From a virus: 56,713 bases of DNA. Both the position numbers and the translations under genes were made by a program. The notes beneath the pieces are model-generated. The model had not been told where the DNA came from. It worked only from the letters and a program-made list of their open reading frames with translations, and did not search any database. The stretch covers positions 1 through 56,713 of the IMG/VR virus record IMGVR_UViG_3300027623_000001, one strand, 5' to 3'. Below, in pieces: positions 1 to 56,713 of the stretch. The stretch's first letter is position 1. Each line of letters begins with the position of its first letter.

Positions 1-127
1 CTATATGAAAAGGATGAGCCTGGATTGTATTTAGGCAAAGCGATAAGATGGTATTACGCGCTTAATCAAGTGGGGCCCATAGTGTACGCAAAGTCCGGAA
101 ACAAAGTACCCAAGAGCGATGGAGCGA
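1..127. repeat. Left copy of 127-bp terminal direct repeat
   Basis: Bases 1-127 are identical to bases 56587-56713. The repeat lies inside the DNA polymerase gene and keeps its reading frame when the ends are joined. A length of 127 is the largest k-mer used by common de Bruijn assemblers, so this is most simply the overlap left on a circular contig rather than a biological terminal repeat. Confidence 0.97.
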
Positions 128-26143: not shown

Positions 26144-27436
26144 TCAAGGTATTAACAATTGACAAGCGGCAAGGTCTGCTTGAGCAGTTGCTAGATCCGC
26201 TTGAGCAGTTGCTAGATCCGTGGCTACCAGTAGCGCTGCCTGCTCTGTAGTAGCGAGATCAGCTTCGCAGGTAGCCAAGTCGGCTTGTGCAGTTGCAAGC
26301 GCTGCGAGCGCGGCGGTCTCCGCTTGCTGTGCTGTTAGCAAATCGGCTTCCGCTTGCAGTTGCGCAGCTTCAGCATTAGCTTGGGCCGTCTCCGCAGCAA
26401 TTTGCGCAGCTTCGGCAGTAGCAACATCAGCTTCTAGTCCAATGATTGTCCCTTCTGCTGTCGCTAAATCTGCTTCCGCTGCCGCCTGCAAAGCCTGCGC
26501 ATCAAGTATATCTTGCGCTGTACCTGTATTGGCTAGTAGTGCAGCCGCAAGGTCCGCTTCCGCTGTTGCTAGCGCTGCTTCTGCTGCTGCTTGAGCTGCC
26601 TGGGCATCTAGCACGTCTTGAGCCGTTGAGTTCCCGGCAATTGCCGCAGCCAAATCTATCTGCGCCTGTTCTAAGTCCGCTTCTGTTTGAGTTAACGTTG
26701 CAAGAAGAGTTAAGTTAGCAGTTGTCAAACCTAAGTTAGCAGCTTCTATCACAGCACAATCAAGAGGGGCTGTCACACTGTTAGCTAAGTTAGAAGGACT
26801 TGATATGGAACCGTCCGGATATATCGCTGTTACGTAATACTCATTACCTACTACATGGTTTTCCACAGCATAGCTAGGTGAACCATTTGTGATAGTGTAT
26901 TCATAAACATCATTTCGATATACATTCCACTTAACTGAGTTAACAGGTGGCACCCAGGTCAACAGATCGTTATCATCTAACGAAACATTAGTTGGGATCG
27001 CATTAGCTGTAGAGCCTGAAAAGACTGAACATTCCGTGCTACCTCCTGCACCTATAGGCGTAGTGAAATCATAAGTTACGCTTTGCGAAGCAGAGGGCTG
27101 AGAACATTCTTCATTCGCGTTACAACCTATAACAAAATATTTATAGGTCTCGTTTTCGCTAACTTCAGTATCTGTCCATGCTGTTCCATTAATAAATGAT
27201 CCAACTTCATGTCCATCACGGTATACGCGATAAGATACAGCGCTAGAAGTTTGCTCCCAGTTTAAAACAACGCCACCTGGTTGAGATACGACAACTAGAT
27301 TAACAGGTACAGGTTCCCCGTTATCCATTGTAATACCGTTGCCATGCGTGTGATTCGCTGTTTCGTGCGCATAAGCAAGGGTCGTGGATAGTGTAGCTAG
27401 TATAGCGAAAGGTATAGCTATATGGGCTCGCTTCAT
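26144..27436 (-). CDS. Exported protein with Fn3-like domains and Ala-rich coiled coil
   Basis: A 430-aa protein. It has a clear Sec signal peptide (MKRAH, then a hydrophobic core of about 15 residues, cleavage likely after LAYA, residue 23). A His-rich mature start (HETANHTHGNG) follows. About residues 45-125 and 140-222 look like two fibronectin type III domains (LNWEQTSSAVSYRVYRDG; LTWVPPVNSVKWNVYRN). The last 190 residues are heptad-like repeats of A-x-A-D-L-A-x-A. A Sec signal on a phage protein implies export during infection, as for surface-exclusion or envelope-targeting proteins; the real role is unknown. Confidence 0.75.
   Translation of the reverse strand: MKRAHIAIPFAILATLSTTLAYAHETANHTHGNGITMDNGEPVPVNLVVVSQPGGVVLNWEQTSSAVSYRVYRDGHEVGSFINGTAWTDTEVSENETYKYFVIGCNANEECSQPSASQSVTYDFTTPIGAGGSTECSVFSGSTANAIPTNVSLDDNDLLTWVPPVNSVKWNVYRNDVYEYTITNGSPSYAVENHVVGNEYYVTAIYPDGSISSPSNLANSVTAPLDCAVIEAANLGLTTANLTLLATLTQTEADLEQAQIDLAAAIAGNSTAQDVLDAQAAQAAAEAALATAEADLAAALLANTGTAQDILDAQALQAAAEADLATAEGTIIGLEADVATAEAAQIAAETAQANAEAAQLQAEADLLTAQQAETAALAALATAQADLATCEADLATTEQAALLVATDLATAQADLATAQADLAACQLLIP
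26178..26219 (-). repeat. Perfect 21-bp tandem repeat in coiled-coil gene
   Basis: Two identical 21-base units (26178-26198 and 26199-26219) encode a duplicated seven-residue block of the Ala-Asp-Leu coiled coil. The repeat is in frame and probably arose by slippage, showing how the coil length can change. Confidence 0.9.
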
Positions 27437-34387: not shown

Positions 34388-34936
34388 CAGAAATTTAATT
34401 CAATCATGATTTCTGTGACACCAGGCGCATTAAGCTAATAACCACAATTAAAATAATGGTAGGAATCGCAGAAATTCCTTGTTATTCCTAAATATTTATG
34501 GATGGCAGGGGGAGCTCAATAATTCAGCGTTTCCGTATAATAAACATAATACAGTATAAAAAAATTTCATTATGCCACAAGAGCCGCATTCCTGCTTACT
34601 ATTAGTACACTATATATACACATATATTACTATAATACTTTTTTCTATATATTTTAATTAACCCTCCCTACCCTCTATAGTAATTTTTATATATACATAT
34701 TAGCGACGTACCCTACCCTGCTAATAATATATTGTTTTTATTAAGCGGTAACATTATTTTGCTATTTCGCAGTCCTACAAGCTATGAGCCTTATTTCCAA
34801 GTAATTTGCTCAAATATTATACATTATGTTCATTATTTTAAGCGTATACTTGCGCACTGCCAGTACCCTGCCAAATATTTATTCTTTAAGTTTAAACATG
34901 GGGTACATTAATAATTCAACTATAAAAGAGACAATT
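34388..34936. other. AT-rich divergent region, candidate origin and control region
   Basis: About 550 bp without a convincing gene separate the two arms. The centre (about 34600-34750) is very AT-rich with alternating TA tracts. The 6-mer TACCCT occurs at 34669, 34709, 34714 and 34864 on the plus strand, twice in direct succession. A TATACT at 34844 may be the -10 of the first rightward gene. These features fit a replication origin or main control region. No DnaA box was recognised. A Met codon at 34826 opens a longer reading of the next gene but has no ribosome site. Confidence 0.45.
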
Positions 34937-35869
34937 ATGTTAGTAATTTTAGATGAAGACATAGATAGATTGCGCAAAGAGCACAATTTAATCAGCGAGG
35001 GTTTCATCCTTGCACAGTTCGGACAGCAGGCATTTTGGCCTGCGAAAATATTTCCATACGCTACAGATTTCGCTCATATTGTTATTAGGGATATTCTCAC
35101 TTTTAAGGATGACGCCCAAACTATAAGGCTTGCACAAGCCTTGGATGATAAATTAGTCATTCAGCGCGTTGCGCCTTTATTGGAGCTTAACCAGCCCAAC
35201 TCAGGCATACCTGATTCCAAACTCGTAGACATAAGCCATAAAGATTTTGAGTATGATATTGCTTGTCCGTATGATGAAGTTGATTTAAGCCTTTCGGAGT
35301 ATTACGGCTTCTGTTACGAATACAAATATCATATGGCGATGCAAATAGCGTTTCCGGAGTTAATGACGGAACATTGTGGTTATCTAATGACTCACCCAAG
35401 GGAATGGCCTAAGTACCGCGAGCTATTATATGAAGCTGTAAATAAGTTCGCAAATCCACAGCAATACGAAGAACCTAAGCGTCCAGGTAGGCCTGCTGCA
35501 CCAATAGATGAGAAAGCTGTTAAAGAGAAAGAGCTGAAAACGAACAGCTACAATCTTTGGATAGCACAGTGCCAAGCTCGTAAGTCTGCTATCAGCCAAG
35601 CATGGGAAGCATTTGAAACTAGACAATTAAAAGTTCGTGAAGAGCGAACACAAGCCACTTCTTATATCGCAACTCTTAAGGCGGAGATTAATAAGTTAAA
35701 AGCAGAAAATGCCAGTGCTGTTGATATTGAGAAAGCTAACATCGCTTGGCGTTCTACTCGGCTTACATTGGAGGAGCATAAAGTACAATGGGCCAAAGAG
35801 CTTCACGAATTAAAAGCAACATACAAGAAGCTTAAAAACACACCCGCACCGCAGAGAATAGTAGAGTGA
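34937..35869 (+). CDS. First rightward early protein, AT-hook-like and coiled coil
   Basis: A 310-aa protein starting MLVILDEDID, with an AAGAGA site seven bases upstream. A globular first half is rich in aromatics and acids. The linker near residues 179-187 reads KRPGRPAAP, close to an AT-hook core (R-G-R-P). The last 100 residues are a likely coiled coil (YIATLKAEINKLKAEN). It sits first beyond the AT-rich divergent region, so binding to that region is an attractive idea. No family recognised. Confidence 0.6.
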   Translation: MLVILDEDIDRLRKEHNLISEGFILAQFGQQAFWPAKIFPYATDFAHIVIRDILTFKDDAQTIRLAQALDDKLVIQRVAPLLELNQPNSGIPDSKLVDISHKDFEYDIACPYDEVDLSLSEYYGFCYEYKYHMAMQIAFPELMTEHCGYLMTHPREWPKYRELLYEAVNKFANPQQYEEPKRPGRPAAPIDEKAVKEKELKTNSYNLWIAQCQARKSAISQAWEAFETRQLKVREERTQATSYIATLKAEINKLKAENASAVDIEKANIAWRSTRLTLEEHKVQWAKELHELKATYKKLKNTPAPQRIVE

Positions 35870-36239: not shown

Positions 36240-36277
36240 ACATGCTACTTAAACAAGTGATAAGGATGATAGAATGA
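36240..36277 (+). repeat. 38-bp imperfect direct repeat, second copy
   Basis: Second copy of the element at 36014-36051. Here it is non-coding up to the ATG at 36274 and supplies an AAGGA-type ribosome site at the same distance from the start as in the first copy. Confidence 0.8.
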
Positions 36278-36810
36278 GTATAACAAGACGTGGCTTCTTG
36301 CAAGCCTTAACCGCAATACCTGCCGCAGGTGTTTTATTAAAAACTGCCCCTATAATGGCAGCGCCTGATCCTATAAAAGAGATCCGGAGAATAGCGCATG
36401 AGATAGCAGCACCTAAGAAGATAATAACAGACTCGTATTACTTGCAAGGTGTTACTAGCGCACATTTGAATAACGAGGACGAGTATGTAGAAATGCACGT
36501 TGTTAATCCTAAAAAGCGGCGACACGTTATTCAAACATTAACTATAAAAACGTTAGTAGCTATACCTGATGAATTAGGTATAGCTACTCGTGAAGAAGTC
36601 GCTTGGCGTTTTAGAGTAGGTGGTTGGGAGAACATTCTTGCTGTCGGGCATGTAACTAGAGCTATGTCTATGGTTAGTCACAGTGAAATGGTACCTGCTA
36701 CGAATCCGGATGGCTCTATAAATTACCTTGCACCTGAGGTTCGCATACCTGTTATTCATTATGAATATGAAATGATTTGCAGCCATATTTCAAGCGGTGC
36801 AATAACATGA
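36274..36810 (+). CDS. Protein with twin-arginine (Tat) signal
   Basis: A 178-aa protein. Residues 4-11 read TRRGFLQA, matching the Tat motif S/T-R-R-x-F-L-K, followed by a hydrophobic stretch and a likely cleavage after APIMAA (about residue 30). The mature part is beta-rich (YLQGVTSAHLNNEDEYVEM; VIHYEYEMICSHISSG) with no enzyme motif recognised. A Tat signal means export of a folded protein, very unusual for a phage early gene. The ATG is preceded by AAGGA. Confidence 0.65.
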   Translation: MSITRRGFLQALTAIPAAGVLLKTAPIMAAPDPIKEIRRIAHEIAAPKKIITDSYYLQGVTSAHLNNEDEYVEMHVVNPKKRRHVIQTLTIKTLVAIPDELGIATREEVAWRFRVGGWENILAVGHVTRAMSMVSHSEMVPATNPDGSINYLAPEVRIPVIHYEYEMICSHISSGAIT

Positions 36811-44390: not shown

Positions 44391-45284
44391 ATGCGATATC
44401 TAGCTGAAAAAACTGTTGCGCTAATTGAAAGCGTAATTAAAGAAGACCAAGGCAGTAGTTACCGGGATTACTTAGGTAAAGTTATTCCGCATATAGGTGA
44501 CGCATACGAAGCCGATAGCTTTCCTTTTAGATCTCATATGGGTGCTTCATTAATTGGACGCGAATGCCCTCGCGAAATTTGGTATAGCTTTCGATGGGCA
44601 ACAGACAAGAAACACAAAGGGCAGTTACTAAGATTATTTAATCGCGGGCATTTAGAAGAAGCGCGTTTCATAGCAATATTATTGGCTATAGGTGTAGAGG
44701 TTTACCAGCAGGACGAGAACGGTAAACAATTTCGAGTTTCTGATGTTGATGGACATTTTGGCGGTAGCGGAGACGGTAGGTTGGTAGGCGTTCCGGACTT
44801 GCCTGAAGGTACGCATGCGCTTGGCGAATTTAAAACTGCAAACGATAGTTCCTTTAAGAAAATAAAAGCGAACGGAGTGCGAGAAGAAAAAAACGAGCAC
44901 TATGTACAAATGAATATCTATATGGGTCGCATGGGATTACCCGCGGCTCTGTATTTAGTAGTTAATAAGAATGACGATGAAATATATGGAGAGATAGTTC
45001 CGTATAACAAACTTATAGATGACGAGTACACTAACAGAGCGCATCATTTAGTGTATACAGAAACACCTCCAGCTAAAATAAATGAGAGCGTTGGTTTCTG
45101 GAAGTGCCGTTTCTGTGACCACAAACCTGTTTGTCATATGAAAGCTGTTCCGGATGTTAACTGTCGTACCTGTTCACTTTCCAAATTGTTAAAAGATGGG
45201 CAATGGGCCTGTGGTAGGACAGGTGAAATTTTAGACAAGCAAGCGCAATACAACGCATGCGAAGACCACACGAGATTAATATGA
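44391..45284 (+). CDS. Cas4/RecB-like PD-(D/E)XK exonuclease
   Basis: A 297-aa protein. Asp128 (GSGDGRL), Glu146 and Lys148 (GEFKT) and a YVQMNIYM motif near 172-179 form the RecB-family PD-(D/E)XK active site. The C-terminal quarter contains at least eight Cys, including CRFCDHKPVC, CRTCS and a late WAC, as in Cas4/AddB-type iron-sulfur nucleases. It probably resects DNA ends for annealing by the upstream proteins. No other CRISPR-related gene is nearby. The stop overlaps the J-domain start. Confidence 0.78.
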   Translation: MRYLAEKTVALIESVIKEDQGSSYRDYLGKVIPHIGDAYEADSFPFRSHMGASLIGRECPREIWYSFRWATDKKHKGQLLRLFNRGHLEEARFIAILLAIGVEVYQQDENGKQFRVSDVDGHFGGSGDGRLVGVPDLPEGTHALGEFKTANDSSFKKIKANGVREEKNEHYVQMNIYMGRMGLPAALYLVVNKNDDEIYGEIVPYNKLIDDEYTNRAHHLVYTETPPAKINESVGFWKCRFCDHKPVCHMKAVPDVNCRTCSLSKLLKDGQWACGRTGEILDKQAQYNACEDHTRLI

Positions 45285-45892
45285 TAGATTTATACAGCAC
45301 CTTAGGCGTAGTTCGTGAAGCTAGTGCGATAGAAATTAAAAACGCTTACAAGAAACTAGCTCAGAAATACCATCCGGATAAAGACCCTAGTCCTGAAGCT
45401 ACTAAAAAATTCCAAGACATTAAATTCGCATATGAAATTCTAAGCGATTCAAATCGTCGAGAAGTTTATAACGAATCAGGTATGACAGAGCAGGTACTGA
45501 CGCCTGAAGATGAAGCTAAGTTTATTGTGAACGCTTTTATTGCAAAGATAATGTCTGAAAACGAATACCAAAGCATAGACTACGCTAAGGATCTTCAGAT
45601 TAATATTAAGCGCGAAATTAAAGCAGGTAAGAAGTTTCTAAAACAGCAAGAAAAGATTCTTAGTCGCGTTCAAAAGTTATCGGGTAAGTTTAAAGGCGAT
45701 CCGTTCGTAGATCATTTGGAAGCGCAAGAACATATAATCGAAGAACGTTTAGAAGGTGTAAGCGCAAAGATAGAAGTCTTTGAATTAGCGTTAACGCTAG
45801 CAAACAGTTATGAATACTTTGGTGACATTGAAGAACTAGAAGTAAATCCTGAACGTTCATTATTAGAAATGTTGACATCTCTGCATGATTAA
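45281..45892 (+). CDS. J-domain (DnaJ-like) protein
   Basis: A 203-aa protein starting MIDLYSTLGV at an ATGA overlap. The first 65 residues are a canonical J domain with HPD at 31-33 (KYHPDKD) and the QDIKFAYEILSD helix. No Gly/Phe or zinc domain follows; the rest is a charged, helical domain of its own. J domains stimulate Hsp70 ATPase, so it may bring host DnaK to the replisome, as lambda does with host DnaJ. It overlaps the helicase by eight bases. Confidence 0.85.
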   Translation: MIDLYSTLGVVREASAIEIKNAYKKLAQKYHPDKDPSPEATKKFQDIKFAYEILSDSNRREVYNESGMTEQVLTPEDEAKFIVNAFIAKIMSENEYQSIDYAKDLQINIKREIKAGKKFLKQQEKILSRVQKLSGKFKGDPFVDHLEAQEHIIEERLEGVSAKIEVFELALTLANSYEYFGDIEELEVNPERSLLEMLTSLHD

Positions 45893-47817: not shown

Positions 47818-48438
47818 ATGAACAAGAAGCAAACATACGCAACTAAAGCAGCAGCAAAGAAAGGCGCAATTCGCGCAAACTCGAAAACTCATAACTTCGA
47901 CATTGCTGAAGTTACTTTCCAGAAAATGGAAAATGATCGTTGGATTTGGATCGACGAATGTGATCAATCAATTTTAGATCGTACCGGCGGAGCGTTTATC
48001 CATTGCCCTCATTGTGGTATCCATTTAGAAAACGGACTGGTCGAGCATGATTACAGCATTACACAAGCTGAAGTTGATGCAGGTGAAGCTGATTACAGAA
48101 ACGATACTCACGAATTGTCTTGCATGGCATGCAATGGAGAATTTGGTAACGAGCTTTCTGCTGCACCTTGGAGCGCTAAGAAAGTAACAGCACCAACTGG
48201 CGAAGGACTTAAGATCGAAAAGAATCGCCCAGTTAGTAACGGTATCGCACGTCCAAGTGTTAGCGGAAAGTGTCGTGCAGTTTGGGATACATGTGATGCG
48301 CTACTTGCAGAACATGGAGAATTTCCGAAGCCTAAAATGCTTAAAGAAGTTATAGCTAAGAGTCACCCGGAAGTAAGTCCAGTAACAGCCACAGTCCAAC
48401 TGTACCGCTGGAGAGCTTTCCAAAGTGTTGAAGGTTAA
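47818..48438 (+). CDS. Zinc-ribbon protein with shared C-terminal domain, paralogue 1
   Basis: A 206-aa protein starting MNKKQTYATK, with a GAGGG site; the earlier Met at 47779 lacks a site. A lysine-rich start is followed by HCPHCGIHL and CMACNGEFG, a zinc ribbon (residues about 60-115). The last ~65 residues (about 142-206; RPSVSGKCRAVWDTCDALL, then TATVQLYRWRAFQ) form a domain also present at the ends of the next two proteins. The domain occurs in many phage proteins of unknown role and looks like a small helical DNA-binding unit. Confidence 0.68.
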   Translation: MNKKQTYATKAAAKKGAIRANSKTHNFDIAEVTFQKMENDRWIWIDECDQSILDRTGGAFIHCPHCGIHLENGLVEHDYSITQAEVDAGEADYRNDTHELSCMACNGEFGNELSAAPWSAKKVTAPTGEGLKIEKNRPVSNGIARPSVSGKCRAVWDTCDALLAEHGEFPKPKMLKEVIAKSHPEVSPVTATVQLYRWRAFQSVEG

Positions 48439-48447
48439 TAAAAAGAA

Positions 48448-48470
48448 AGCGTCCGCAATAAGCGGGCGCT
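48448..48470 (+). terminator. Hairpin after paralogue 1
   Basis: The arms agcgtccgc and gcgggcgct pair over 9 bp with one G-T wobble and a 5-nt loop, 10 bp past the stop. No T tract follows, so it may attenuate rather than stop transcription. Confidence 0.45.
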
Positions 48471-48494
48471 CCTTCCTAACTTGGAGATTTTAAA

Positions 48495-49250
48495 ATGACA
48501 CGCCATGTATCAGTAGACTTAGATAATTTAAGGATAGCGTACCTGCATAATGACACCCGTATACTGCATGACATTTCTTGGATTAGTATGCGAACAGTAT
48601 CTTACTGTATTTTCCCGGTAAGCCATGATGATGGGAATTGCTTTGAACGCTTTACAGACTTGGAATTAAAATTAATTTATACGTCAATGACTGGACTAGA
48701 ATGGCCACACATATTCAAACGCAAAGCTGTTATTCAAGTTCTTGTAGATATGTGCCTGGAAGCTCCGGAAACTAAAGCCAAGCTTTCTGAAACATTAGCG
48801 CAATCTGATTATGTAGACGTTAATGATGATAAAGATTGGACATACGTATATGGAGCTAAGCGTCCAACAATACAAACTGAGCTTTTCCCGTCCGTAACGG
48901 TAGCAGTAAACAAGGAAGCAGAAGCGAAAGCAGTTGCAGGTGAAACGCCAGCAGTCGCTAACAAGCCGAAGCTTAACTTGGAGCCCACACAGGGCGTAGA
49001 GCAGCGCGTAAGCACAGCAGCAGCTAAGCCTAAGCGAGCAGCCAGTAAAGCTCCTAAGGGCATTACAGCGCTTATACGTGCAGAAGCTCAGCAAGCATGG
49101 GAAGCAGCGGGCAAACCTGTAGAAAAAGACCAGTTAACAGAGATAAGAAAAGCGGTTCGTGATAAGTTTATTGAAGAAGGTGTTAATAAAAATACACTTA
49201 GCGTACAACTTTCTAAATGGCAGAAAACAATATTGGGCACTAGTAGCTAG
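48495..49250 (+). CDS. Protein with shared C-terminal domain, paralogue 2
   Basis: A 251-aa protein with a GGAG-type site. The first 130 residues are a globular domain of unknown type (aromatic and acidic). A Lys/Ala/Pro-rich linker (about 140-185) joins it to a C-terminal domain (about 187-250; AQQAWEAAGKPVEKDQLTEI, then NTLSVQLSKWQKTI) that aligns with those of the neighbours: helix with R/Q-x-x-W, a Pro-containing loop, and a final Q-x-x-x-W segment. Function unknown. Confidence 0.62.
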   Translation: MTRHVSVDLDNLRIAYLHNDTRILHDISWISMRTVSYCIFPVSHDDGNCFERFTDLELKLIYTSMTGLEWPHIFKRKAVIQVLVDMCLEAPETKAKLSETLAQSDYVDVNDDKDWTYVYGAKRPTIQTELFPSVTVAVNKEAEAKAVAGETPAVANKPKLNLEPTQGVEQRVSTAAAKPKRAASKAPKGITALIRAEAQQAWEAAGKPVEKDQLTEIRKAVRDKFIEEGVNKNTLSVQLSKWQKTILGTSS

Positions 49251-49254
49251 ACAA

Positions 49255-49286
49255 AGCAAGGTAAATACACTTATACTTACCTTGCT
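49255..49286 (+). terminator. Hairpin after paralogue 2
   Basis: A perfect 10-bp inverted repeat (agcaaggtaa / ttaccttgct, 12-nt loop) begins five bases after the stop. No T tract follows. It may be a weak terminator or a barrier protecting the upstream message; the tandem repeat region follows directly. Confidence 0.5.
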
Positions 49287-49291
49287 CGCAG

Positions 49292-49328
49292 TAATTAACT
49301 AATTAACTAACTAATTAACTAACTAATT
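49292..49328. repeat. AT-rich tandem repeat (TAATTAAC units)
   Basis: Units TAATTAAC, then two copies of the 12-mer TAATTAACTAAC, then TAATTTT. It lies between the hairpin and the next gene. It could be an UP-element-like promoter booster, a protein-binding array or simple slippage product. It is too short and lacks spacers, so it is not a CRISPR. Confidence 0.8.
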
Positions 49329-49355
49329 TTATTTAAACATAAAGGATAACTTATC

Positions 49356-50000
49356 ATGAGTACATTAAAAGAATTGAACGCTGCTGTAACTGCATCTAAC
49401 AAAGCAGTAACAGCTTCTGAAAAAGCTGTTGCAAAATTAGAAGGAGCAAAGACTCCGGACAAAGATGCAATCAAAGAAGCGAAAGCCGAATTGCGAACTG
49501 CTAAATCTGAAAACAAGAAAGCCGTCAATGCGGTGACCAAGTTTGAGAAAGCAGCAGAGCGCGAAGCTGCTAAGGAAGAGCGCGAAGCGGCTAAGGCTGA
49601 GAAAGCGAAAGAACGCGAAGCAGCTAAGCAAGAACGCGAAGCGGCCAAGGCTGCTAAAGCAGCAGAACGTGAAGCTAACGAAATGCCTGTTCAAAACGAT
49701 GTGCGTCATCCTAAGCCTGGTACCAAGTGTGATGAGTGCTGGGGTATCAACGAAGCGATTACAGTTAAACTAGGGCAGACTGCGCCTATTGCGCATGTTC
49801 TTGAAGCTGGCCGTAAAGCTGGCCTTGAAGACGCTACGCTCAAGACTCAATATGCTCGTTGGAGAAAATTCAACGGCATTACAGGTCGAGTTGTTGACCC
49901 TGTTAAGGAAGCCGCAGCAGAAAAAGCCGCAGAAGAAAAAGCGAAAGCGAAAGCGAAAGCTGCTAAGGATAAGGCTGCTAAACTAGCGAAAGCAGCATAA
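49356..50000 (+). CDS. Protein with shared C-terminal domain, paralogue 3
   Basis: A 214-aa protein. Residues 1-108 are an Ala/Lys/Glu-rich coiled coil with repeated AKxEREAAK units. Then comes the shared domain at about 113-175 (RHPKPGTKCDECWGINEAI, then TLKTQYARWRKFNGITGRV), the best match of the three to the widespread phage pattern ending Q-Y-x-R-W-R-K-F. A second Lys/Ala-rich tail follows. A strong terminator lies 31 bp downstream. Probably a DNA-binding protein; no proven role. Confidence 0.66.
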   Translation: MSTLKELNAAVTASNKAVTASEKAVAKLEGAKTPDKDAIKEAKAELRTAKSENKKAVNAVTKFEKAAEREAAKEEREAAKAEKAKEREAAKQEREAAKAAKAAEREANEMPVQNDVRHPKPGTKCDECWGINEAITVKLGQTAPIAHVLEAGRKAGLEDATLKTQYARWRKFNGITGRVVDPVKEAAAEKAAEEKAKAKAKAAKDKAAKLAKAA

Positions 50001-50030
50001 CGAACTTCAGTTAAGCCCTGAAGGTAGGTT

Positions 50031-50069
50031 GGCGGAAAGATTCCTCACAGTCTCTTTCCGCCTTTTTTT
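50031..50069 (+). terminator. Rho-independent terminator before the que cluster
   Basis: A perfect 10-bp stem (ggcggaaaga / tctttccgcc, 12-nt loop) is followed at once by seven T (50063-50069). It is a textbook intrinsic terminator and separates the early replication genes from the DNA-modification genes. Confidence 0.92.
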
Positions 50070-50099
50070 GTTCCCGTCTATAAATGAGATCCTCTAAGT

Positions 50100-50807
50100 A
50101 TGAAACCAAACGTTCAAGTTATCGAAAAACGAATCGCTTCTAATGGCGCCGAAATAGATATTGTAGATGTCTTTTTAACTATACAAGGGGAAGGACCTTT
50201 TACCGGTCGTCCTGCTATCTTTATTAGGCTCGCTGGATGCAACTTGCAATGTCCAGGCTGTGATACGGACTACACTAGCAATAGAGAATCTTTTGAATAC
50301 GGCAGTATTATTGATAAGGTAGTTGACTTAGATAATTTTAATGACTTTCATAATGCGCCTACTCTCGTTGTTATCACAGGAGGCGAACCTTTCAGACAGA
50401 ACATTACTGCATTATGTAATAAACTTATCGAACTTACTTACGAAGTCCAAGTAGAAACAAATGGTTCTTTCGCGCCCATAGGTGCGCTAGATAAAAATGT
50501 GGTTATTGTGTGCAGTCCGAAAACTGGATCTGTAAACAAAGAAATCCAAGAACTTGCTTCTTGTTATAAATACGTCATGGCTGCTGACAGTGTAGATCCA
50601 GAAGACGGGTTACCTATACAAGCTTTACAGCATGCGGTAAAATCTAAGCTCGCACGTCCTCCCAAAGGTATGCCTGTATATTTGCAACCTATGGATGCGC
50701 AAGATACCAAAGTGAATGAGGCAAACTTAAAAGCCGTCCTCGATAGCTGCATGAAGTTTAATTACCGATTGCAAATTCAAATTCATAAAATTTTAGGAGT
50801 TGATTAA
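50100..50807 (+). CDS. queE: 7-carboxy-7-deazaguanine synthase
   Basis: A 235-aa radical-SAM enzyme. The cluster motif C-x3-C-x2-C is CNLQCPGC (Cys47, 51, 54), preceded by the QueE start VFLTIQGEGPFTGRPAIFIR and followed by a GGEP motif (TGGEP near 99). It turns carboxy-tetrahydropterin into CDG, third step to preQ0. The start lacks a clear ribosome site; a TATAAA at 50082-50087 has no good -35, so the cluster may depend on readthrough of the terminator or on a phage-specific start signal. One-base overlap with queC. Confidence 0.92.
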   Translation: MKPNVQVIEKRIASNGAEIDIVDVFLTIQGEGPFTGRPAIFIRLAGCNLQCPGCDTDYTSNRESFEYGSIIDKVVDLDNFNDFHNAPTLVVITGGEPFRQNITALCNKLIELTYEVQVETNGSFAPIGALDKNVVIVCSPKTGSVNKEIQELASCYKYVMAADSVDPEDGLPIQALQHAVKSKLARPPKGMPVYLQPMDAQDTKVNEANLKAVLDSCMKFNYRLQIQIHKILGVD

Positions 50808-51499
50808 TGATACACACAGATAAGAAAGCGCTTGTCGTTCTTAGCGGCGGTCAAGATAGCGTTACGTGTTTAGGTGTTGCGCTTAAACAATATGGAAACG
50901 TCGAGGCTATTTGTTTCGAGTATGGACAAAGACATACTATAGAGCTCGAACAAGCTGAACAGGTGTGTAGGATGTTTAACGTCAACCTTGTGGAGCATAC
51001 AATTCCTTCATTAGAAACGCTTGCTGATAGTGCGCTTATTGGAGGTAAAGGTGATGTCAGCGATAAGCATCATGACCACAAAGACTTGCCAGCTTCTTTT
51101 GTCCCAAATCGAAACGCGCTATTCATTACGATCGCTCATGCTTATGCGCAGAAGATAAAAGCTGATCATCTTATACTAGGCGTATGTGAAACAGATTACA
51201 GCGGGTATCCAGACTGTCGTGCTGCATTTATTGATGCGATGGAAGAAACGTTAAACCTTGGCTATCAGACAGCCATTAGAATTAGAACTCCTTTAATGTA
51301 CATCGACAAAGCAGCTACTTTCCAATTAGCTGAAGATGTAGATTTCTTAAATGTTGTGTTGGAACATAGCCACACCTGCTATAACGGCATCCGTAATACT
51401 AAACACGAATGGGGGTATGGTTGTGCTCAATGTCCCGCTTGTGAATTGCGGGCAAAAGGTTACGATGCTTATCTAGCAAATAGAAAGCAAACCGCTTAG
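50807..51499 (+). CDS. queC: PreQ0 synthase
   Basis: A 230-aa protein with the ATP-pyrophosphatase loop SGGQDS at 13-18 and a C-terminal zinc cluster (HTCYNG, then GCAQCPACELR). These are diagnostic of QueC, which makes preQ0 from CDG, ATP and ammonia. It is a single-domain QueC, without the glutamine-amidotransferase fusion found in phages that make archaeosine-type dG+. That points to dPreQ0 as the end product. Confidence 0.93.
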   Translation: MIHTDKKALVVLSGGQDSVTCLGVALKQYGNVEAICFEYGQRHTIELEQAEQVCRMFNVNLVEHTIPSLETLADSALIGGKGDVSDKHHDHKDLPASFVPNRNALFITIAHAYAQKIKADHLILGVCETDYSGYPDCRAAFIDAMEETLNLGYQTAIRIRTPLMYIDKAATFQLAEDVDFLNVVLEHSHTCYNGIRNTKHEWGYGCAQCPACELRAKGYDAYLANRKQTA

Positions 51500-51529
51500 C
51501 ATAGGCTTACAACTTAAAAGGAATACTAC

Positions 51530-51958
51530 ATGAAAATAATAGCAAGCAGGTATCATGATTTCTGTATGGGGCATCGTGTTGTAGGTCATGAAGGCAAGTG
51601 CAAGAACTTTCACGGCCATAACTACCGTTTCACATTTGAGTGTGAATGTCTAACTGTTGGAGGGCTTGATGTTCTTGGGCGTGTTATAGATTTTAGTGTT
51701 ATCAAGTCTACTCTTTGTCAGTGGCTTGAAGAAAACTGGGATCATAAAATGATGCTGTGGGACCAAGATCCTTATGTAGACGCTATGAAAGAAATGGACA
51801 ACGAAGTATTCTCTGTGCCATTTAATCCAACAGCTGAAAACATAGGCAAATATTTCTTAGAAGAGATTGCGCCGGAATTGTTATTAGATACTGGAGTCTC
51901 TTTAACTCGCATACAAGTTGAAGAGACTCGTAAGTGCTCAGCTATAGTGGAACTCTAA
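51530..51958 (+). CDS. queD: 6-carboxy-tetrahydropterin synthase
   Basis: A 142-aa protein. GHRVVGHEGKCKNFHGHNY (about 14-32) holds the catalytic Cys24 and zinc ligands His15, His28 and His30 of the QueD/PTPS fold; the C-terminal TRIQVEETRKCSAIV carries the conserved Glu. It turns dihydroneopterin triphosphate into CPH4. AAAAGGA lies about eight bases upstream. Its TAA is two bases before folE. Confidence 0.92.
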   Translation: MKIIASRYHDFCMGHRVVGHEGKCKNFHGHNYRFTFECECLTVGGLDVLGRVIDFSVIKSTLCQWLEENWDHKMMLWDQDPYVDAMKEMDNEVFSVPFNPTAENIGKYFLEEIAPELLLDTGVSLTRIQVEETRKCSAIVEL

Positions 51959-51960
51959 TA

Positions 51961-52530
51961 ATGGATCGTAAAGAGCTGGAACTTATTGTTGGCCGCATGC
52001 TATTTGAAATTGAGCCTACTGAAGAAGATATCTTACGCGAAGGGCTTTTAGAAACACCTGTTCGCGTTGCCAAAGCTATGGAGCATTGGTTTAATGGATA
52101 TGATAAAAACCCTAAAGACATCCTCAAAGTATTTGAGGATGGAGCTGAAGACTATGATCAAATGATTGTAGTTAAAGACATCCCCATCTATAGCAAGTGT
52201 GAACACCACATGGCGGATATCTTTGGGACTTGCACTATCGCTTATGTACCTAACGGTAAGATTGTAGGCTTGTCTAAATTGTCCAGGCTTGCTGACATGT
52301 ACGCTCGTCGTTTGCAAGTGCAAGAACGTTTGACGCAACAGATAGCGAACGCTTTACAGAAACATCTAGAGCCTATAGGTGTTGGCGTTATGATTAAGGC
52401 ACGTCATATGTGTATGGAGTCTCGCGGCATTTGCCAGCAAGGACACTGCACAATTACATCCGCTTTGCATGGTGCTATTAAAAACAACACCACAGCAAGA
52501 GCTGAGTTCTTATCGCTAGCTAGTAGTTAA
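51961..52530 (+). CDS. folE: GTP cyclohydrolase I
   Basis: A 189-aa protein started at the ATG at 51961, just past queD; the earlier Met at 51934 lies inside queD. Zinc ligands Cys80 and His83 are in SKCEHH and Cys151 in RHMCMESRG. The GLSKLSRLADMYARRLQVQE stretch is the GTP-binding core (about 103-122). It opens the guanine ring of GTP to start the preQ0 route. Length fits the bacterial enzyme. Confidence 0.94.
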   Translation: MDRKELELIVGRMLFEIEPTEEDILREGLLETPVRVAKAMEHWFNGYDKNPKDILKVFEDGAEDYDQMIVVKDIPIYSKCEHHMADIFGTCTIAYVPNGKIVGLSKLSRLADMYARRLQVQERLTQQIANALQKHLEPIGVGVMIKARHMCMESRGICQQGHCTITSALHGAIKNNTTARAEFLSLASS

Positions 52531-52549
52531 ACCTTGGATTGTCAGCAAC

Positions 52550-53467
52550 ATGAATATCTATATGGCGGCACTGCACTCGAACGGGTATAGACACACAAAC
52601 CGCTACGAGAAGTTAAACGATAGAGAGAAACATGTTGTTGACAATCTCCCACATCTTTTAGAATCGTACCACTACATACACAAAGACAGTTTTGTTCAAG
52701 CTATACGCGAGAAAGGTGATTTGGTTTTTCTTGATTCCGGCGCATTCTCTGCTTATACTCTAGGCGTTACTATTGACTTGCCTGGGTATTGCGATTACAT
52801 AAAAAAGAACGCTGATATACTACGCTATGAAGATAATTCTGTTATGGCTTCTGTGTTGGATGGTATTGGCGACCCTCAAAAGACTTATGAAAACCAATTA
52901 GCGATGGAGTCGTTAGGTGTACGTCCGCTGCCCTGCTTTCACTACGGTGAAGACGAACGTTATTTTGAATGGTATATGAAAAACTACGATTACATTACTA
53001 TAGGAGGCATGGTAGGCAAGTCTAGTCAAAATTTAATTAAATGGCTAGACAGATTATGGGAGCGTTATGTTATCGACGGAAGCGGTACGCCTCGTGTTAA
53101 ACTGCACGCATTCGGTATTACTGCTATACCTATAATGAAAAGATATCCATGGTACAGTGTAGATTCGTCCTCTTGGATTCAGTCAGCAGCGTTCGGAACT
53201 GTAATAACTCCGGAGTTTGGAGCAGTGAGCGTATCCTCACAATCGCCTAGCAGGCACAAAGCAGGACAACACGTAAGCACGTTAAGACATTTGGATCGCA
53301 AGTATGTGATGGATATGTTTATCGAACAAGGTTTTGACTATGAAAGGCTGTCCACAGTATACGAATCTAGAGCAGCGTATAACTTGTGGTCATTCACTGA
53401 AATAAGCAAACAACTAGCAGCAATAGGAAATAAGACTTTTCAACCCGACATACAGGAATTATTTTAA
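52550..53467 (+). CDS. dpdA: DpdA-like DNA transglycosylase (7-deazaguanine insertion)
   Basis: A 305-aa TGT-fold protein. LDSGAF with Asp62 at residues 61-66 matches the TGT base-binding DSGGF loop, HAFG at 186-189 matches the family's LMGVG-like loop, and SVDSSSW at 203-209 with Asp205 matches the nucleophile. The C-x-C-x2-C zinc site of tRNA-TGTs is absent, as in phage DpdA proteins. Next to queE-queC-queD-folE it should swap guanine for preQ0 in phage DNA. Related phage systems protect DNA against host restriction enzymes. Confidence 0.85.
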   Translation: MNIYMAALHSNGYRHTNRYEKLNDREKHVVDNLPHLLESYHYIHKDSFVQAIREKGDLVFLDSGAFSAYTLGVTIDLPGYCDYIKKNADILRYEDNSVMASVLDGIGDPQKTYENQLAMESLGVRPLPCFHYGEDERYFEWYMKNYDYITIGGMVGKSSQNLIKWLDRLWERYVIDGSGTPRVKLHAFGITAIPIMKRYPWYSVDSSSWIQSAAFGTVITPEFGAVSVSSQSPSRHKAGQHVSTLRHLDRKYVMDMFIEQGFDYERLSTVYESRAAYNLWSFTEISKQLAAIGNKTFQPDIQELF

Positions 53468-53703
53468 TGCAGGTACTAAACCAAAAACAACTAGATAGTA
53501 TCAAAAATACTATTGCTATCCAATGCTCTGAAGGTAATTGGAACGCAGATCCTTACATGCTAGGTATGGCGAACGGGATGTTATTAATCCAATCTATTAT
53601 TGACAATACTGAACCTGAATATTTAAAAGGACCTAAAAAATGGACAGGTATAAGGTCGTTAGACATAGTTAGAGAGAATCCATATAATGATAAAAGAACT
53701 TAA
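53467..53703 (+). CDS. Hypothetical protein between dpdA and the clamp
   Basis: A 78-aa protein starting one base inside the dpdA stop (TAATG). It has the segment WNADPYMLGMANGMLL, which recurs in small phage proteins of unknown function, and a basic C-terminus. It overlaps the clamp-like gene by 17 bases. Confidence 0.6.
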   Translation: MQVLNQKQLDSIKNTIAIQCSEGNWNADPYMLGMANGMLLIQSIIDNTEPEYLKGPKKWTGIRSLDIVRENPYNDKRT

Positions 53704-54646
53704 ATTTGTACAGGGCGCGGTATCTAGTAAAGGTTTCACTCCAGAGCTAAGTCATTTCAAAATAAAAGAGGGTGTCGTGCAAAGCTATAACGGCTCGCTT
53801 GCATTAAGTACACCTATCGCATTTGATATCGATTGTATTCCTAAAGCTGCGCCGTTCGTTAAGGCCATTAGTAACTGTGACGAAACAGTGACTATGAGTA
53901 TGACACCGGCGGGCAGGCTTGCTATTAAATCAGGTAAGTTTCGAGCGTATATTGAATGTCTTGATCCGGGCACTGCACTTGCTCACGTTGAACCTACGGG
54001 CGATGCTTTCGAAATTAATGGAGAGGGCTTGCTTACTGCTCTTAAAACCATAGTCCCGTTTATAGGCAACGACGCTTCCAGGCCTTGGACTAATGGCGTA
54101 CTGCTAGCAGGGAACAGCGCTTTCGCTACTAATAATGTCACAGTTGTTGAATACTGGATAGGCACAGAGTTCCCGTTAAAATGTAATGTACCTAAGGAAG
54201 CTATTCGCGAGATGCTACGTATTAATGAAGCGCCTATATCTGCACAAGCAGACGAGTCTAGTATTAGCTTTCATTATGCCGATAAACGTTGGGTTCGCTG
54301 CCAGTTGTTAGCTACGGACTGGCCTGACATTAATGCTATCGTCAGCAAAGAATGCAACGCTTCTGAAATTAATCCAGAATTATTTAATGCGATAAATGTA
54401 GTTAAGCCTTTTGTTGATGATGCAGGCAGAATATATTTCAATGAGGACGTTATACGCACCAGCGTTATAGACAGTGAAGGAGCTACGCACGAAGTTGAAG
54501 GTATTCCCGATGAAGGTGTTTATAATTATGAGATGCTTAACTTGCTTAAGAATACAGCAACTCATGTTGATTTTAGTTTATATCCCAAGCCTTGTATTTT
54601 CTACGGAACTAATCTTCGAGGTGCGATAGTAGGTATGCGCACCTAA
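53687..54646 (+). CDS. Sliding-clamp-like protein (DnaN-related)
   Basis: A 319-aa protein that directly precedes the polymerase. The fold reads as repeats of beta strands with short helices: RLAIKSGKFRAYIECL near 85-100, NGVLLAGNSAFATNNV near 140-155, and a C-terminus ending GAIVGMRT. This resembles bacterial beta-clamp C-terminal strands, and similar proteins beside family B polymerases in phages are annotated as clamps. The identification is by pattern and position, so moderate. The polymerase starts one base inside its stop. Confidence 0.6.
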   Translation: MIKELKFVQGAVSSKGFTPELSHFKIKEGVVQSYNGSLALSTPIAFDIDCIPKAAPFVKAISNCDETVTMSMTPAGRLAIKSGKFRAYIECLDPGTALAHVEPTGDAFEINGEGLLTALKTIVPFIGNDASRPWTNGVLLAGNSAFATNNVTVVEYWIGTEFPLKCNVPKEAIREMLRINEAPISAQADESSISFHYADKRWVRCQLLATDWPDINAIVSKECNASEINPELFNAINVVKPFVDDAGRIYFNEDVIRTSVIDSEGATHEVEGIPDEGVYNYEMLNLLKNTATHVDFSLYPKPCIFYGTNLRGAIVGMRT

Positions 54647-56713
54647 TGCGAAGCGATGCTCTAGGTCTTTTTTGGGAAGACGTTAACGCAAAATTAACAA
54701 AGAAAAAAGACTTGCTCTATGAACAAGATTGGACTGAGCTTGCGCCTGGGCGTTGGATACGGGCGTATCTTATGGAACTTAATCCGGAAGACGATAATTT
54801 ACAAAAGACATTATCTGTAGACGAAGCGTATCTTGAAGCTAAGGCTAGTAAGCAAAATATAAAAGCAGAACCGCCAGATCCTGTTTGGCTTGCTGATGAT
54901 TATTTGCCCGGGTTAGAAGAAGCTCTAGCTTTTGATATTGAACTGTATACGGACGAACAGCTCGTTGAAGATGGATTATCTTGGCACACCCATCCTGAAG
55001 GTCGAAAACACATACTTATATTTGACGTTGAGTCTTATATTAATTACTTTCTAGTAGCTTTTAAATCTCTAACCAACAAAAAAGTTGTGTACTTTGAAAT
55101 CTCTGAAACTGCTGTTGAAATGGATTTACGTAAACTCGCCTGGGTGTTTGAAAGCTTCTGCGTTGTAGGTTTCAACTCCAAGAATTATGACTTACCTATA
55201 TGTTCATTGGCGCTTGCAGGTTACGGGTATGAAACGCTTAAGAAGTTTACTAATAATATAATCGTTAACGAAGAAAAGTATTGGCATTTATTGCGCAGTG
55301 CTAAGGTGAAGTTAATTGAGTGTAACCACATTGATTTATTCGACGTCGCGCCGTTACGTGCGAGTCTTAAACTTTATGGCGGACGTATACATGTGAGGAA
55401 GATGCAGGACTTACCTTTTCCATCGGAAATAAACCTGTCGTTCAATCAGGTAGCTATAACTCGCCTGTACTGTATTAATGATTTAGATAATACAGCGGAG
55501 CTCTATAATAAGTTAAGTAAGGATCTAGCTTTGCGCGAAACACTAAGCCTGGAGAACGGTATAGACTTACGTTCCAAATCTGATGCGCAAATCGCAGAAG
55601 CAATTATAGGCAAAGAAGTTGAGAGTCTTAACGGATACAAGGCATACCCGCCTAAAATAATTCCAGGCCAAACGTTTTACTATAAAGTTCCAGAGTTTAT
55701 AGAGTACGAAAGCGAATTAATGAAGTACGTTATAAACCAAATAGCTAACACTCCACTCGTAGTATCTGAAATAGGTCGTGTAGACTTGCCTAAGAGTCTT
55801 AAGGACTTGCCTGTTAAAATTAATGAAAGCACCTATCGCATGGGTATAGGCGGATTGCATAGTTCGGAAAAGTCTGTATCCCATTACAAAACAAAAGACC
55901 ATATCCTTGTAGACCGCGATGTCGCGTCTTACTACCCGCGCATAATATTAAACCAAGCATTGTATCCATCACACTTAGGAACTAACTTTCTGCAAGTGTA
56001 TAACACTATTGTAGAGCGTCGCTTAGAAGCTAAGGCCGCAGGCAACAAGACTGTCGCAGACACACTTAAAATCACTATTAACGGAACGTTCGGTAAGCTT
56101 GGAAGTAGATGGTCTATTCTGTATAGCCCGGACCTTTTAATTCAAGTTACGTTGACTGGACAGCTCGCGTTACTAATGTTAATAGAGCGAATGGAGCTTG
56201 CCGGTATTCCTGTGGTTAGCGCCAACACAGATGGAATAATAATGAAATGCCCTACAGGTAAAATAGATGAAATGGAATCTATCGTAACTGACTGGGAATA
56301 CGACACTAACTTTGAAACGGAAGCCACTTACTACAAATCAGTCCACAGTCGCGACGTTAACAATTACATCGCTATCGTAGATGAGCCCGAAGAGAATGAA
56401 GATAAAGCAAAATTAAAAGGCGTATTTTCAGATCCAGGCTTAAAAAAGAATCCTCAAACTAATGTCTGTATTGATGCTGTAAACAACTACCTTATAGATC
56501 GCAAGCCTATAACCACAACAATTAAAGAATGCCAAGAGCTGTGGAAATTCGTTAGCGTTCGCACAGTAAACGGAGGTGCGGTTAAACTATATGAAAAGGA
56601 TGAGCCTGGATTGTATTTAGGCAAAGCGATAAGATGGTATTACGCGCTTAATCAAGTGGGGCCCATAGTGTACGCAAAGTCCGGAAACAAAGTACCCAAG
56701 AGCGATGGAGCGA
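54646..56713 (+). CDS. Family-B-type DNA polymerase (continues at 1-231)
   Basis: The gene starts at the ATG inside TAATG and leaves the window at its right end; joined to 1-231 it is 723 aa. Exonuclease motifs: FDVES (Asp127, Glu129), FNSKNYD (Asn177 to Asp182) and YCIND (Tyr275, Asp279). Polymerase motifs: A, DVASYYP (Asp425); B, KITINGTFGK (Lys475); C, ANTDGI (Asp529). Motif C has Asn where family B normally has the first Asp of DTD. It is the replicative polymerase, coupled to the clamp-like gene. Confidence 0.88.
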   Translation, partial: MRSDALGLFWEDVNAKLTKKKDLLYEQDWTELAPGRWIRAYLMELNPEDDNLQKTLSVDEAYLEAKASKQNIKAEPPDPVWLADDYLPGLEEALAFDIELYTDEQLVEDGLSWHTHPEGRKHILIFDVESYINYFLVAFKSLTNKKVVYFEISETAVEMDLRKLAWVFESFCVVGFNSKNYDLPICSLALAGYGYETLKKFTNNIIVNEEKYWHLLRSAKVKLIECNHIDLFDVAPLRASLKLYGGRIHVRKMQDLPFPSEINLSFNQVAITRLYCINDLDNTAELYNKLSKDLALRETLSLENGIDLRSKSDAQIAEAIIGKEVESLNGYKAYPPKIIPGQTFYYKVPEFIEYESELMKYVINQIANTPLVVSEIGRVDLPKSLKDLPVKINESTYRMGIGGLHSSEKSVSHYKTKDHILVDRDVASYYPRIILNQALYPSHLGTNFLQVYNTIVERRLEAKAAGNKTVADTLKITINGTFGKLGSRWSILYSPDLLIQVTLTGQLALLMLIERMELAGIPVVSANTDGIIMKCPTGKIDEMESIVTDWEYDTNFETEATYYKSVHSRDVNNYIAIVDEPEENEDKAKLKGVFSDPGLKKNPQTNVCIDAVNNYLIDRKPITTTIKECQELWKFVSVRTVNGGAVKLYEKDEPGLYLGKAIRWYYALNQVGPIVYAKSGNKVPKSDGA
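56587..56713. repeat. Right copy of 127-bp terminal direct repeat
   Basis: Identical to bases 1-127. Removing one copy gives a 56,586-bp circle and leaves the polymerase frame intact. Confidence 0.97.

What the first reader, a model, noticed from the sequence alone, without database searches (positions are those of the whole stretch)
50100..53467. Complete preQ0-to-DNA modification cassette
Seen: queE, queC, queD, folE and a TGT-fold gene in one run, with motifs intact (Cys47/51/54 in QueE, SGGQDS in QueC, HGH in QueD, CEHH in FolE, Asp62 and Asp205 in the transglycosylase). Known: phage DpdA homologues put 7-deazaguanines into DNA in Seurat/9g-like phages and this blocks many restriction enzymes. 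Inferred: no amidotransferase fused to QueC, no QueF-like gene and no other tailoring gene are present, so the base should be plain dPreQ0.
Basis: partly seen in the sequence, partly recalled or inferred. Interest (0 to 1): 0.8.

Follow-up and report, generated by a model that had tools for sequence, protein, structure and literature searches.

The report
Phage operon swapping guanine for preQ0
This uncultivated phage carries the five-gene operon, already known from phage CAjan and its relatives, that makes a modified guanine called preQ0 and swaps it into the phage's own DNA to resist restriction enzymes; the newer part is that its queC gene and its insertion enzyme both differ from those of its closest relatives in ways that suggest the phage switched from one modified base to another.

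Summary
Window 50100-53467 holds queE, queC, queD, folE and a phage-type dpdA in one run, all with intact catalytic motifs. The last gene matches phage DpdA (PHROG 887, 1e-80; 59-69% identity to CAjan, Seurat and R7M DpdA) and no tRNA TGT model; its AlphaFold model has the TGT fold. A 127-bp exact terminal repeat shows a complete 56,586-bp circle, and no Gat amidotransferase or QueF was found in it. This is the minimal set that gives dPreQ0 in CAjan and Rosebush (PMC6884629). The chemistry was not measured. What was not stated: the nearest named relative, Alteromonas phage R7M, has Gat-QueC (predicted dG+) in the same slot. QueC and Gat-QueC are two separate clades, yet on the DpdA tree the label changes about 5-7 times, so this slot is swapped repeatedly. 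DpdA residue 157, beside the GG loop, is Gly/Ala/Ser in all 41 Gat-QueC phages and large in 74 of 84 others. The window's DpdA sits among Gat relatives but carries the CAjan-like set (Y132 I151 K157 A187), suggesting that DpdA adapts to the free base on offer. Ordinary cassette, with a testable specificity lead.

The parts
50100..50807 (+). queE, 7-carboxy-7-deazaguanine synthase (radical SAM, C47xxxC51xxC54)
   Evidence: PHROG 2076 3.1e-57; NCBIfam QueE models; motif check; groups with L003 and L005 QueE
50807..51499 (+). queC, stand-alone 7-cyano-7-deazaguanine (preQ0) synthase, 230 aa, PP-loop SGGQDS and Zn motif CxxCxxC, no Gat domain; start overlaps queE stop (TAATG)
   Evidence: Pfam PF06508 3e-71; QueC tree: stand-alone clade with CAjan, S0112, L003; motif check
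51530..51958 (+). queD, 6-carboxytetrahydropterin synthase (HGH)
   Evidence: PHROG 2389 1.1e-48; PF01242
51961..52530 (+). folE, GTP cyclohydrolase I (CEHH); ATG 51961 preferred over GTG 51934
   Evidence: PF01227 3.3e-66; sequence and upstream region
52550..53467 (+). dpdA, phage DNA-guanine transglycosylase (DpdA of the Queuovirinae), 305 aa; D62, D104, H131, G152-G153, D205 conserved; Y132 I151 K157 A187 = pocket signature common in stand-alone-QueC phages
   Evidence: PHROG 887 1.1e-80; tblastn 69% R7M, about 59% CAjan/Seurat; AlphaFold2 pLDDT 91 with TGT fold; covariation
53467..53703 (+). 78-aa ORF of unknown function, coupled to dpdA by TAATG; not related to the small ORF at this place in CAjan
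   Evidence: weak PHROG 23796 2.5e-4; no relative in the loci searched
53687..54646 (+). DNA polymerase processivity factor (clamp), flanking gene, used as an independent tree marker
   Evidence: PHROG 947 4.7e-75; tree
54646..56713 (+). family B-like DNA polymerase; continues across the circle join to window position 231 (723 aa in all)
   Evidence: weak PF00136 match; open frame across the join
56587..56713 (.). 127-bp exact terminal repeat (copy of 1-127): the record is a complete circle of 56,586 bp

Best explanation
A DNA hypermodification operon of a Queuovirinae phage. FolE, QueD, QueE and QueC turn GTP into the free base preQ0; DpdA (a TGT-fold enzyme with D205 as nucleophile and D62 as general acid/base, by analogy with TGT) cuts chosen guanines out of phage DNA and puts preQ0 in their place, so that the genome carries dPreQ0 and resists part of the host's restriction enzymes. 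The final base is set by which queC allele sits in the second slot of the operon: stand-alone QueC (here, CAjan) delivers preQ0, Gat-QueC (R7M, 9g) leads to G+. Shown here: the genes, their motifs, the completeness of the genome, the absence of Gat and QueF, the fold of DpdA (by prediction), and the repeated exchange of queC alleles. Inferred: the chemistry, the protection, and that this lineage moved from a dG+ to a dPreQ0 state.
For: Profile hits and motifs for all five enzymes. DpdA orthology to CAjan and R7M over 305 residues. TGT fold: top PDB matches are archaeal, bacterial and human TGTs, E 3.6e-6 to 1e-4, probability 1.00. Complete circular genome with no GATase_6 and no QueF over cut-off. 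The minimal set without an amidotransferase gave only dPreQ0 (about 32% of G) in CAjan, and inactivation of dpdA removed all modification (PMC6884629). QueC clades solo/Gat supported 100/100, but the DpdA tree needs 7 label changes and rejects one solo clade, AU p 1.6e-5; clamp, FolE and QueE trees need 9-10 changes.
Against: No virion DNA exists to measure. Several orphan ORFs (for example 34826-35869, 347 aa) match nothing in Pfam, PHROGs or PADLOC and could hide an unknown tailoring enzyme. The genome is depleted in many G-containing palindromes, including ones with GA, so any protection is probably partial. TM-scores to TGT are moderate (0.5-0.57) and rmsd is large.
Confidence: 0.9

Rival explanations
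1. The DNA carries a further derivative (dADG, dG+ or dPreQ1) made from dPreQ0 by an unrecognised phage gene or a host enzyme.
For: Gene content has mispredicted the base before: Dp-1 and HVTV-1 carried dPreQ1, Salmonella phage 7-11 traces of dADG (PMC6884629). The genome has orphan ORFs without family matches.
Against: No Gat, QueF or known Dpd tailoring protein was found in the complete genome. The DpdA pocket residues resemble those of CAjan (dPreQ0 measured) and of HTN2, whose QueC is 98.9% identical to that of Iggy, which is reported to carry dPreQ0 (PMC11008142).
Confidence: 0.08
2. The operon feeds queuosine synthesis in host tRNA: the phage supplies preQ0 to the host and the TGT-like gene acts on tRNA.
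For: preQ0 is a queuosine precursor, and the R7M paper mentions this possibility (PMC8265664).
Against: The transglycosylase has no Pfam TGT match and no CxCxxC zinc site, groups with phage DpdA, and inactivation of its CAjan ortholog removed DNA modification (PMC6884629). No QueF was found and no other queuosine gene was seen in the family scans.
Confidence: 0.02
3. The association of DpdA position 157 with QueC type reflects shared ancestry or target-sequence preference rather than the size of the base's 7-substituent.
For: Gat-linked DpdAs cluster on the tree; independent-pairs tests have too few pairs to reach 0.05; ten stand-alone-QueC phages keep the small residue; sequence motifs other than base identity may differ among DpdAs.
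Against: On the 126-row tree position 157 ranks first of 177 columns (LR 25.1, nominal p 5e-5; 29.8 with small/large coding). The exclusion is one-sided (0 of 41 Gat phages with a large residue), and the window, L086 and L016/L050 each carry Lys/Arg next to Gat relatives.
Confidence: 0.45

Closest known systems
Escherichia phage CAjan (Seuratvirus) dPreQ0 operon
   Same: FolE, QueD, QueE, stand-alone zinc-type QueC and DpdA; same gene order around the clamp and polymerase; similar DpdA pocket pattern (CAjan F132 I151 R157 A187)
   Different: CAjan has extra genes in the cassette (putative preQ0 transporter gp41 and small ORFs) that the window lacks; DpdA about 59% identical
Alteromonas phage vB_AcoS-R7M (Amoyvirus)
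   Same: closest named DpdA (69%) and clamp (59%); same gene order from primase to polymerase
   Different: R7M has Gat-QueC (468 aa) and is predicted to make dG+ (PMC8265664), has a different QueD type, and its DpdA has the Gat-type pocket A132 L151 G157 G187
Enterobacteria phage 9g (Nonagvirus) dG+ operon
   Same: same operon plan; DpdA about 57% identical
   Different: Gat-QueC, dG+ measured; pocket A132 L151 A157 G187
Pseudomonas phage Iggy/HTN2 (Iggyvirus)
   Same: no Gat domain; Iggy reported to carry dPreQ0 (PMC11008142 citing Olsen 2023)
   Different: its QueC is a second stand-alone subfamily that lacks all four zinc cysteines

Membership tests
Phage DpdA (DNA-guanine transglycosylase of the Queuovirinae) | full-length homology to characterised phage DpdA | tested here: met
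   PHROG 887 1.1e-80; tblastn 305/305 residues with R7M, CAjan, Seurat
Phage DpdA (DNA-guanine transglycosylase of the Queuovirinae) | two catalytic aspartates and TGT fold | tested here: met
   D62, D205 invariant; Foldseek TGT matches of the predicted structure
Phage DpdA (DNA-guanine transglycosylase of the Queuovirinae) | inserts a 7-deazaguanine into DNA | not testable with these tools
   needs expression and LC-MS/MS
tRNA-guanine transglycosylase (Tgt, QTRT, arcTGT) | match to the Pfam TGT family and CxCxxC zinc site | tested here: not met
   no PF01702 match with 14/14 controls positive; no CxCxxC
Minimal dPreQ0 cassette (FolE+QueD+QueE+QueC+DpdA, no amidotransferase) | all five genes present with intact motifs | tested here: met
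Minimal dPreQ0 cassette (FolE+QueD+QueE+QueC+DpdA, no amidotransferase) | no Gat and no QueF in the genome | tested here: met
   complete circular genome; Gat; QueF:
Minimal dPreQ0 cassette (FolE+QueD+QueE+QueC+DpdA, no amidotransferase) | no ArcS or other tailoring enzyme | tested here: inconclusive
   nothing in Pfam, PHROGs and PADLOC scans of most ORFs, but not every ORF was scanned and some match nothing
dG+ cassette of the 9g/R7M kind | Gat domain fused to QueC | tested here: not met
   QueC is 230 aa and lies in the stand-alone clade
Queuovirinae | shared replication module and DpdA with classified members | tested here: met
   DpdA, clamp, FolE, QueE homology and gene order as in R7M; no whole-genome phylogeny was made, and there is no megablast match of 48000-56713 to any phage record

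The most novel reading that the evidence does not exclude
The final base of Queuovirinae DNA is set by an exchangeable queC slot, and DpdA then adapts its pocket: Gat-QueC makes free G+, which DpdA can take only with a small residue at position 157 (and usually 132), whereas preQ0 allows large residues there. The window is a lineage among Gat-QueC relatives that changed to stand-alone QueC and gained, in parallel with CAjan, the preQ0-type pocket (Y132 I151 K157 A187). This implies that the amidotransfer happens before insertion, a point Hutinet 2019 leaves open.
Probability: 0.45. Interest if true: 0.62.

Novelty: new member of a known kind. Interest (0 to 1): 0.42.

Why it matters
The cassette itself adds one more, complete, uncultivated phage to a well-described defence-evasion strategy. 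The useful part is comparative: the base-determining gene is exchanged independently of its neighbours, and DpdA residues on the catalytic face follow it. That gives a short list of point mutations (157 first, then 132 and 187) that could show whether DpdA selects preQ0 or G+ as a free base, and so whether Gat-QueC acts before or after insertion.

Tried and rejected
Domain loss as the origin of the stand-alone QueC: rejected, because it falls in a separate clade from the QueC part of Gat-QueC. A Gat gene elsewhere in the genome: none found. The idea that the record is a fragment and absences are weak: rejected by the 127-bp terminal repeat. A tRNA-type TGT: rejected. Sequence-level mapping of DpdA residues onto E. 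coli Tgt by hhalign: aligned only the DSGxF motif and is not usable, so the match of G156-K157 with Tgt G234-E235 rests on the GG(L/M)xVG motif only and is an inference. Profile search of PDB sequences: no TGT match; only the fold comparison showed it. CAjan's preQ0 transporter: absent here. Palindrome statistics as a sign of a modified GA motif: in the window GA-containing palindromes are as depleted as other G-containing ones (0.79 against 0.80), so no support; the GAATTC deficit (2 seen, 12.4 expected) is not shared by R7M (13/8.9) or 9g (8/8.8) and fits the report that EcoRI cuts dPreQ0 but not dG+ DNA, but other sites vary as much. Independent-pairs tests of the covariation had too few supported pairs. 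L007 was first typed 'solo' from a partial gene and was left out of the later tests. The papers by Kot 2020, Olsen 2023 and Cui 2023 are not held in the library, so they are cited only through other papers or not at all.

Full report
1. Observation. Pfam, PHROGs and NCBIfam identify them as QueE, QueC, QueD, FolE and a DpdA-type transglycosylase at E-values from 1e-48 to 1e-80. The motifs are intact, and D62 and D205 are invariant across 35 aligned relatives and all 127 typed ones. queE-queC and dpdA-ORF78 overlap as TAATG, and folE most likely starts at ATG 51961. This is one run of closely spaced genes on the + strand, followed by the clamp and polymerase genes.

2. The record is complete. 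The first and last 127 bases are identical and the DNA polymerase frame closes across the join to 723 aa, so this is a circular assembly of 56,586 bp. Statements about absent genes can therefore be tested. GATase_6 has no match while ringing in all 14 control genomes; Gat domains of R7M, 9g and NP1 find nothing in the window; the only QueF match is inside FolE and below cut-off; the Tgt family is absent. Pfam, PHROGs and PADLOC scans of most other ORFs show no known tailoring enzyme, but several ORFs match nothing.

3. The last gene is phage DpdA. PHROG 887 matches at 1e-80, and 244 phage records hold relatives, best R7M at 69%, then Nipunavirus, Seuratvirus and Nonagvirus phages near 57-61%. 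AlphaFold2 gives pLDDT 91, and Foldseek's best solved structures are archaeosine TGT (1j2b, E 3.6e-6) and bacterial and human TGTs. The zinc site of tRNA TGTs is missing.

4. What it makes. [quoted passage not shown] Rosebush about 28%), and inactivation of dpdA in CAjan removed the modification and the restriction resistance (PMC6884629). The window has the same minimal set and its QueC belongs to the same clade as CAjan's. dPreQ0 is thus the best prediction; no chemistry was measured.

5. The queC slot is exchanged. R7M, the nearest named relative, has Gat-QueC at the same place and was predicted to make dG+ (PMC8265664). Among 54 typed loci, stand-alone QueC and Gat-QueC form two clades with 100/100 support. 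On the DpdA tree the same label needs 7 changes, at least 5 forced by well-supported branches, and one clade of stand-alone types is rejected (AU p 1.6e-5). Window and L003 (stand-alone) lie with R7M and L005 (Gat) in a supported clade (99/96). Clamp, FolE and QueE trees need 9-10 changes. The exchange is a replacement by a different allele, not loss of a domain.

6. DpdA follows QueC. An alignment of eight DpdAs suggested that positions 132, 151 and 157 differ by QueC type. In 126 distinct DpdAs (85 stand-alone, 41 Gat), position 157 is Gly/Ala/Ser in 41/41 Gat phages but large in 74 of 84 others; 151 is Leu and 187 Gly in all Gat phages. A test of correlated evolution on a tree built without these columns puts 157 first of 177 columns (LR 25.1; nominal p 5e-5, about 0.009 after Bonferroni; 29.8 for small/large coding). 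In the secondary structure of the model, 131-133, 153-157 and 187 lie at or just after the C-terminal ends of strands, as do D62 and D205, which in a TIM barrel is the catalytic face. By motif, G152-G153-M-V-G156-K157 corresponds to GGLAVGE of Tgt, where the Leu231/Ala232 peptide flips with preQ1 or guanine and is held by Glu235, and where nearby Val233 governs room for queuine (PMC3660597); this mapping is inference. The pattern is one-sided: small residues occur with either QueC, large ones never with Gat. That is what is expected if free G+ needs room and preQ0 does not. In E. coli, 9g Gat-QueC failed to restore queuosine in a queC mutant yet gave only dG+ with DpdA (PMC6884629), which also points to a free G+ base. 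The window carries Y132 I151 K157 A187 among Gat relatives, like CAjan (F I R A), whereas its near relative L003 has stand-alone QueC with a Gat-like pocket (A L A G).

7. Limits. The column was picked from part of the same data; the coding favours Gat-conserved columns (column 293 in the poorly modelled C-terminus scores nearly as high); independent-pairs tests lack power; on the 126-row tree the branch grouping the window is weaker than on the 56-row tree; and QueC type in contigs is read only from 5-10 kb around dpdA. Target-sequence preference is an alternative reason for the covariation.

8. Verdict. As a system it is already well described (CAjan type), here in a new, complete, uncultivated phage. 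The exchange of the base-determining gene and the matching DpdA residues are the parts worth following up.

Noticed in passing
window 1-127 and 56587-56713: Exact 127-bp terminal repeat: the record is a complete circular genome, although the search tool listed it without a completeness estimate.
   Followed up: yes
L057 8428-9486 (-), L016, L027, L030, L072 and others; 57 of 142 distinct loci: A second stand-alone QueC subfamily lacks all four zinc cysteines and has instead a strongly conserved HTSYDGKYPPTDMNHANVLRA stretch. Phage Iggy, reported to carry dPreQ0, has it. How a QueC works without its zinc site looks open.
   Followed up: partly
window, whole genome: Six-base palindromes with G are depleted: CTGCAG 0 (13.7 expected), ATGCAT 0 (11.6), GCGCGC 0 (10.5), GAATTC 2 (12.4), GGATCC 1 (7.9). 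R7M and 9g do not lack GAATTC.
   Followed up: partly
L002 17440-17886 compared with window 51530-51958: Two distinct QueD types occur at the same operon position in related phages; the R7M type does not match the window type in tblastn at 1e-4.
   Followed up: no
window 34826-35869 and 36274-36810: Two orphan ORFs (347 and 178 aa) at the start of the early region without any match in Pfam, PHROGs or PADLOC.
   Followed up: no
window 53467-53703: 78-aa ORF coupled to dpdA by a TAATG overlap; small ORFs occur at this place in other phages (CAjan, MiCath, HTN2), but CAjan's is not homologous to this one.
   Followed up: partly
L003 about 7100-7900: A 135-aa open frame that reads like a small membrane protein lies between queC and queD, where CAjan has its putative preQ0 transporter.
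   Followed up: no
window 26144-27436 and 45257-45892: A structural-region protein with a rhamnogalacturonan-lyase-like beta domain (PF18370) and an early protein with an N-terminal DnaJ domain (PF00226).
   Followed up: no
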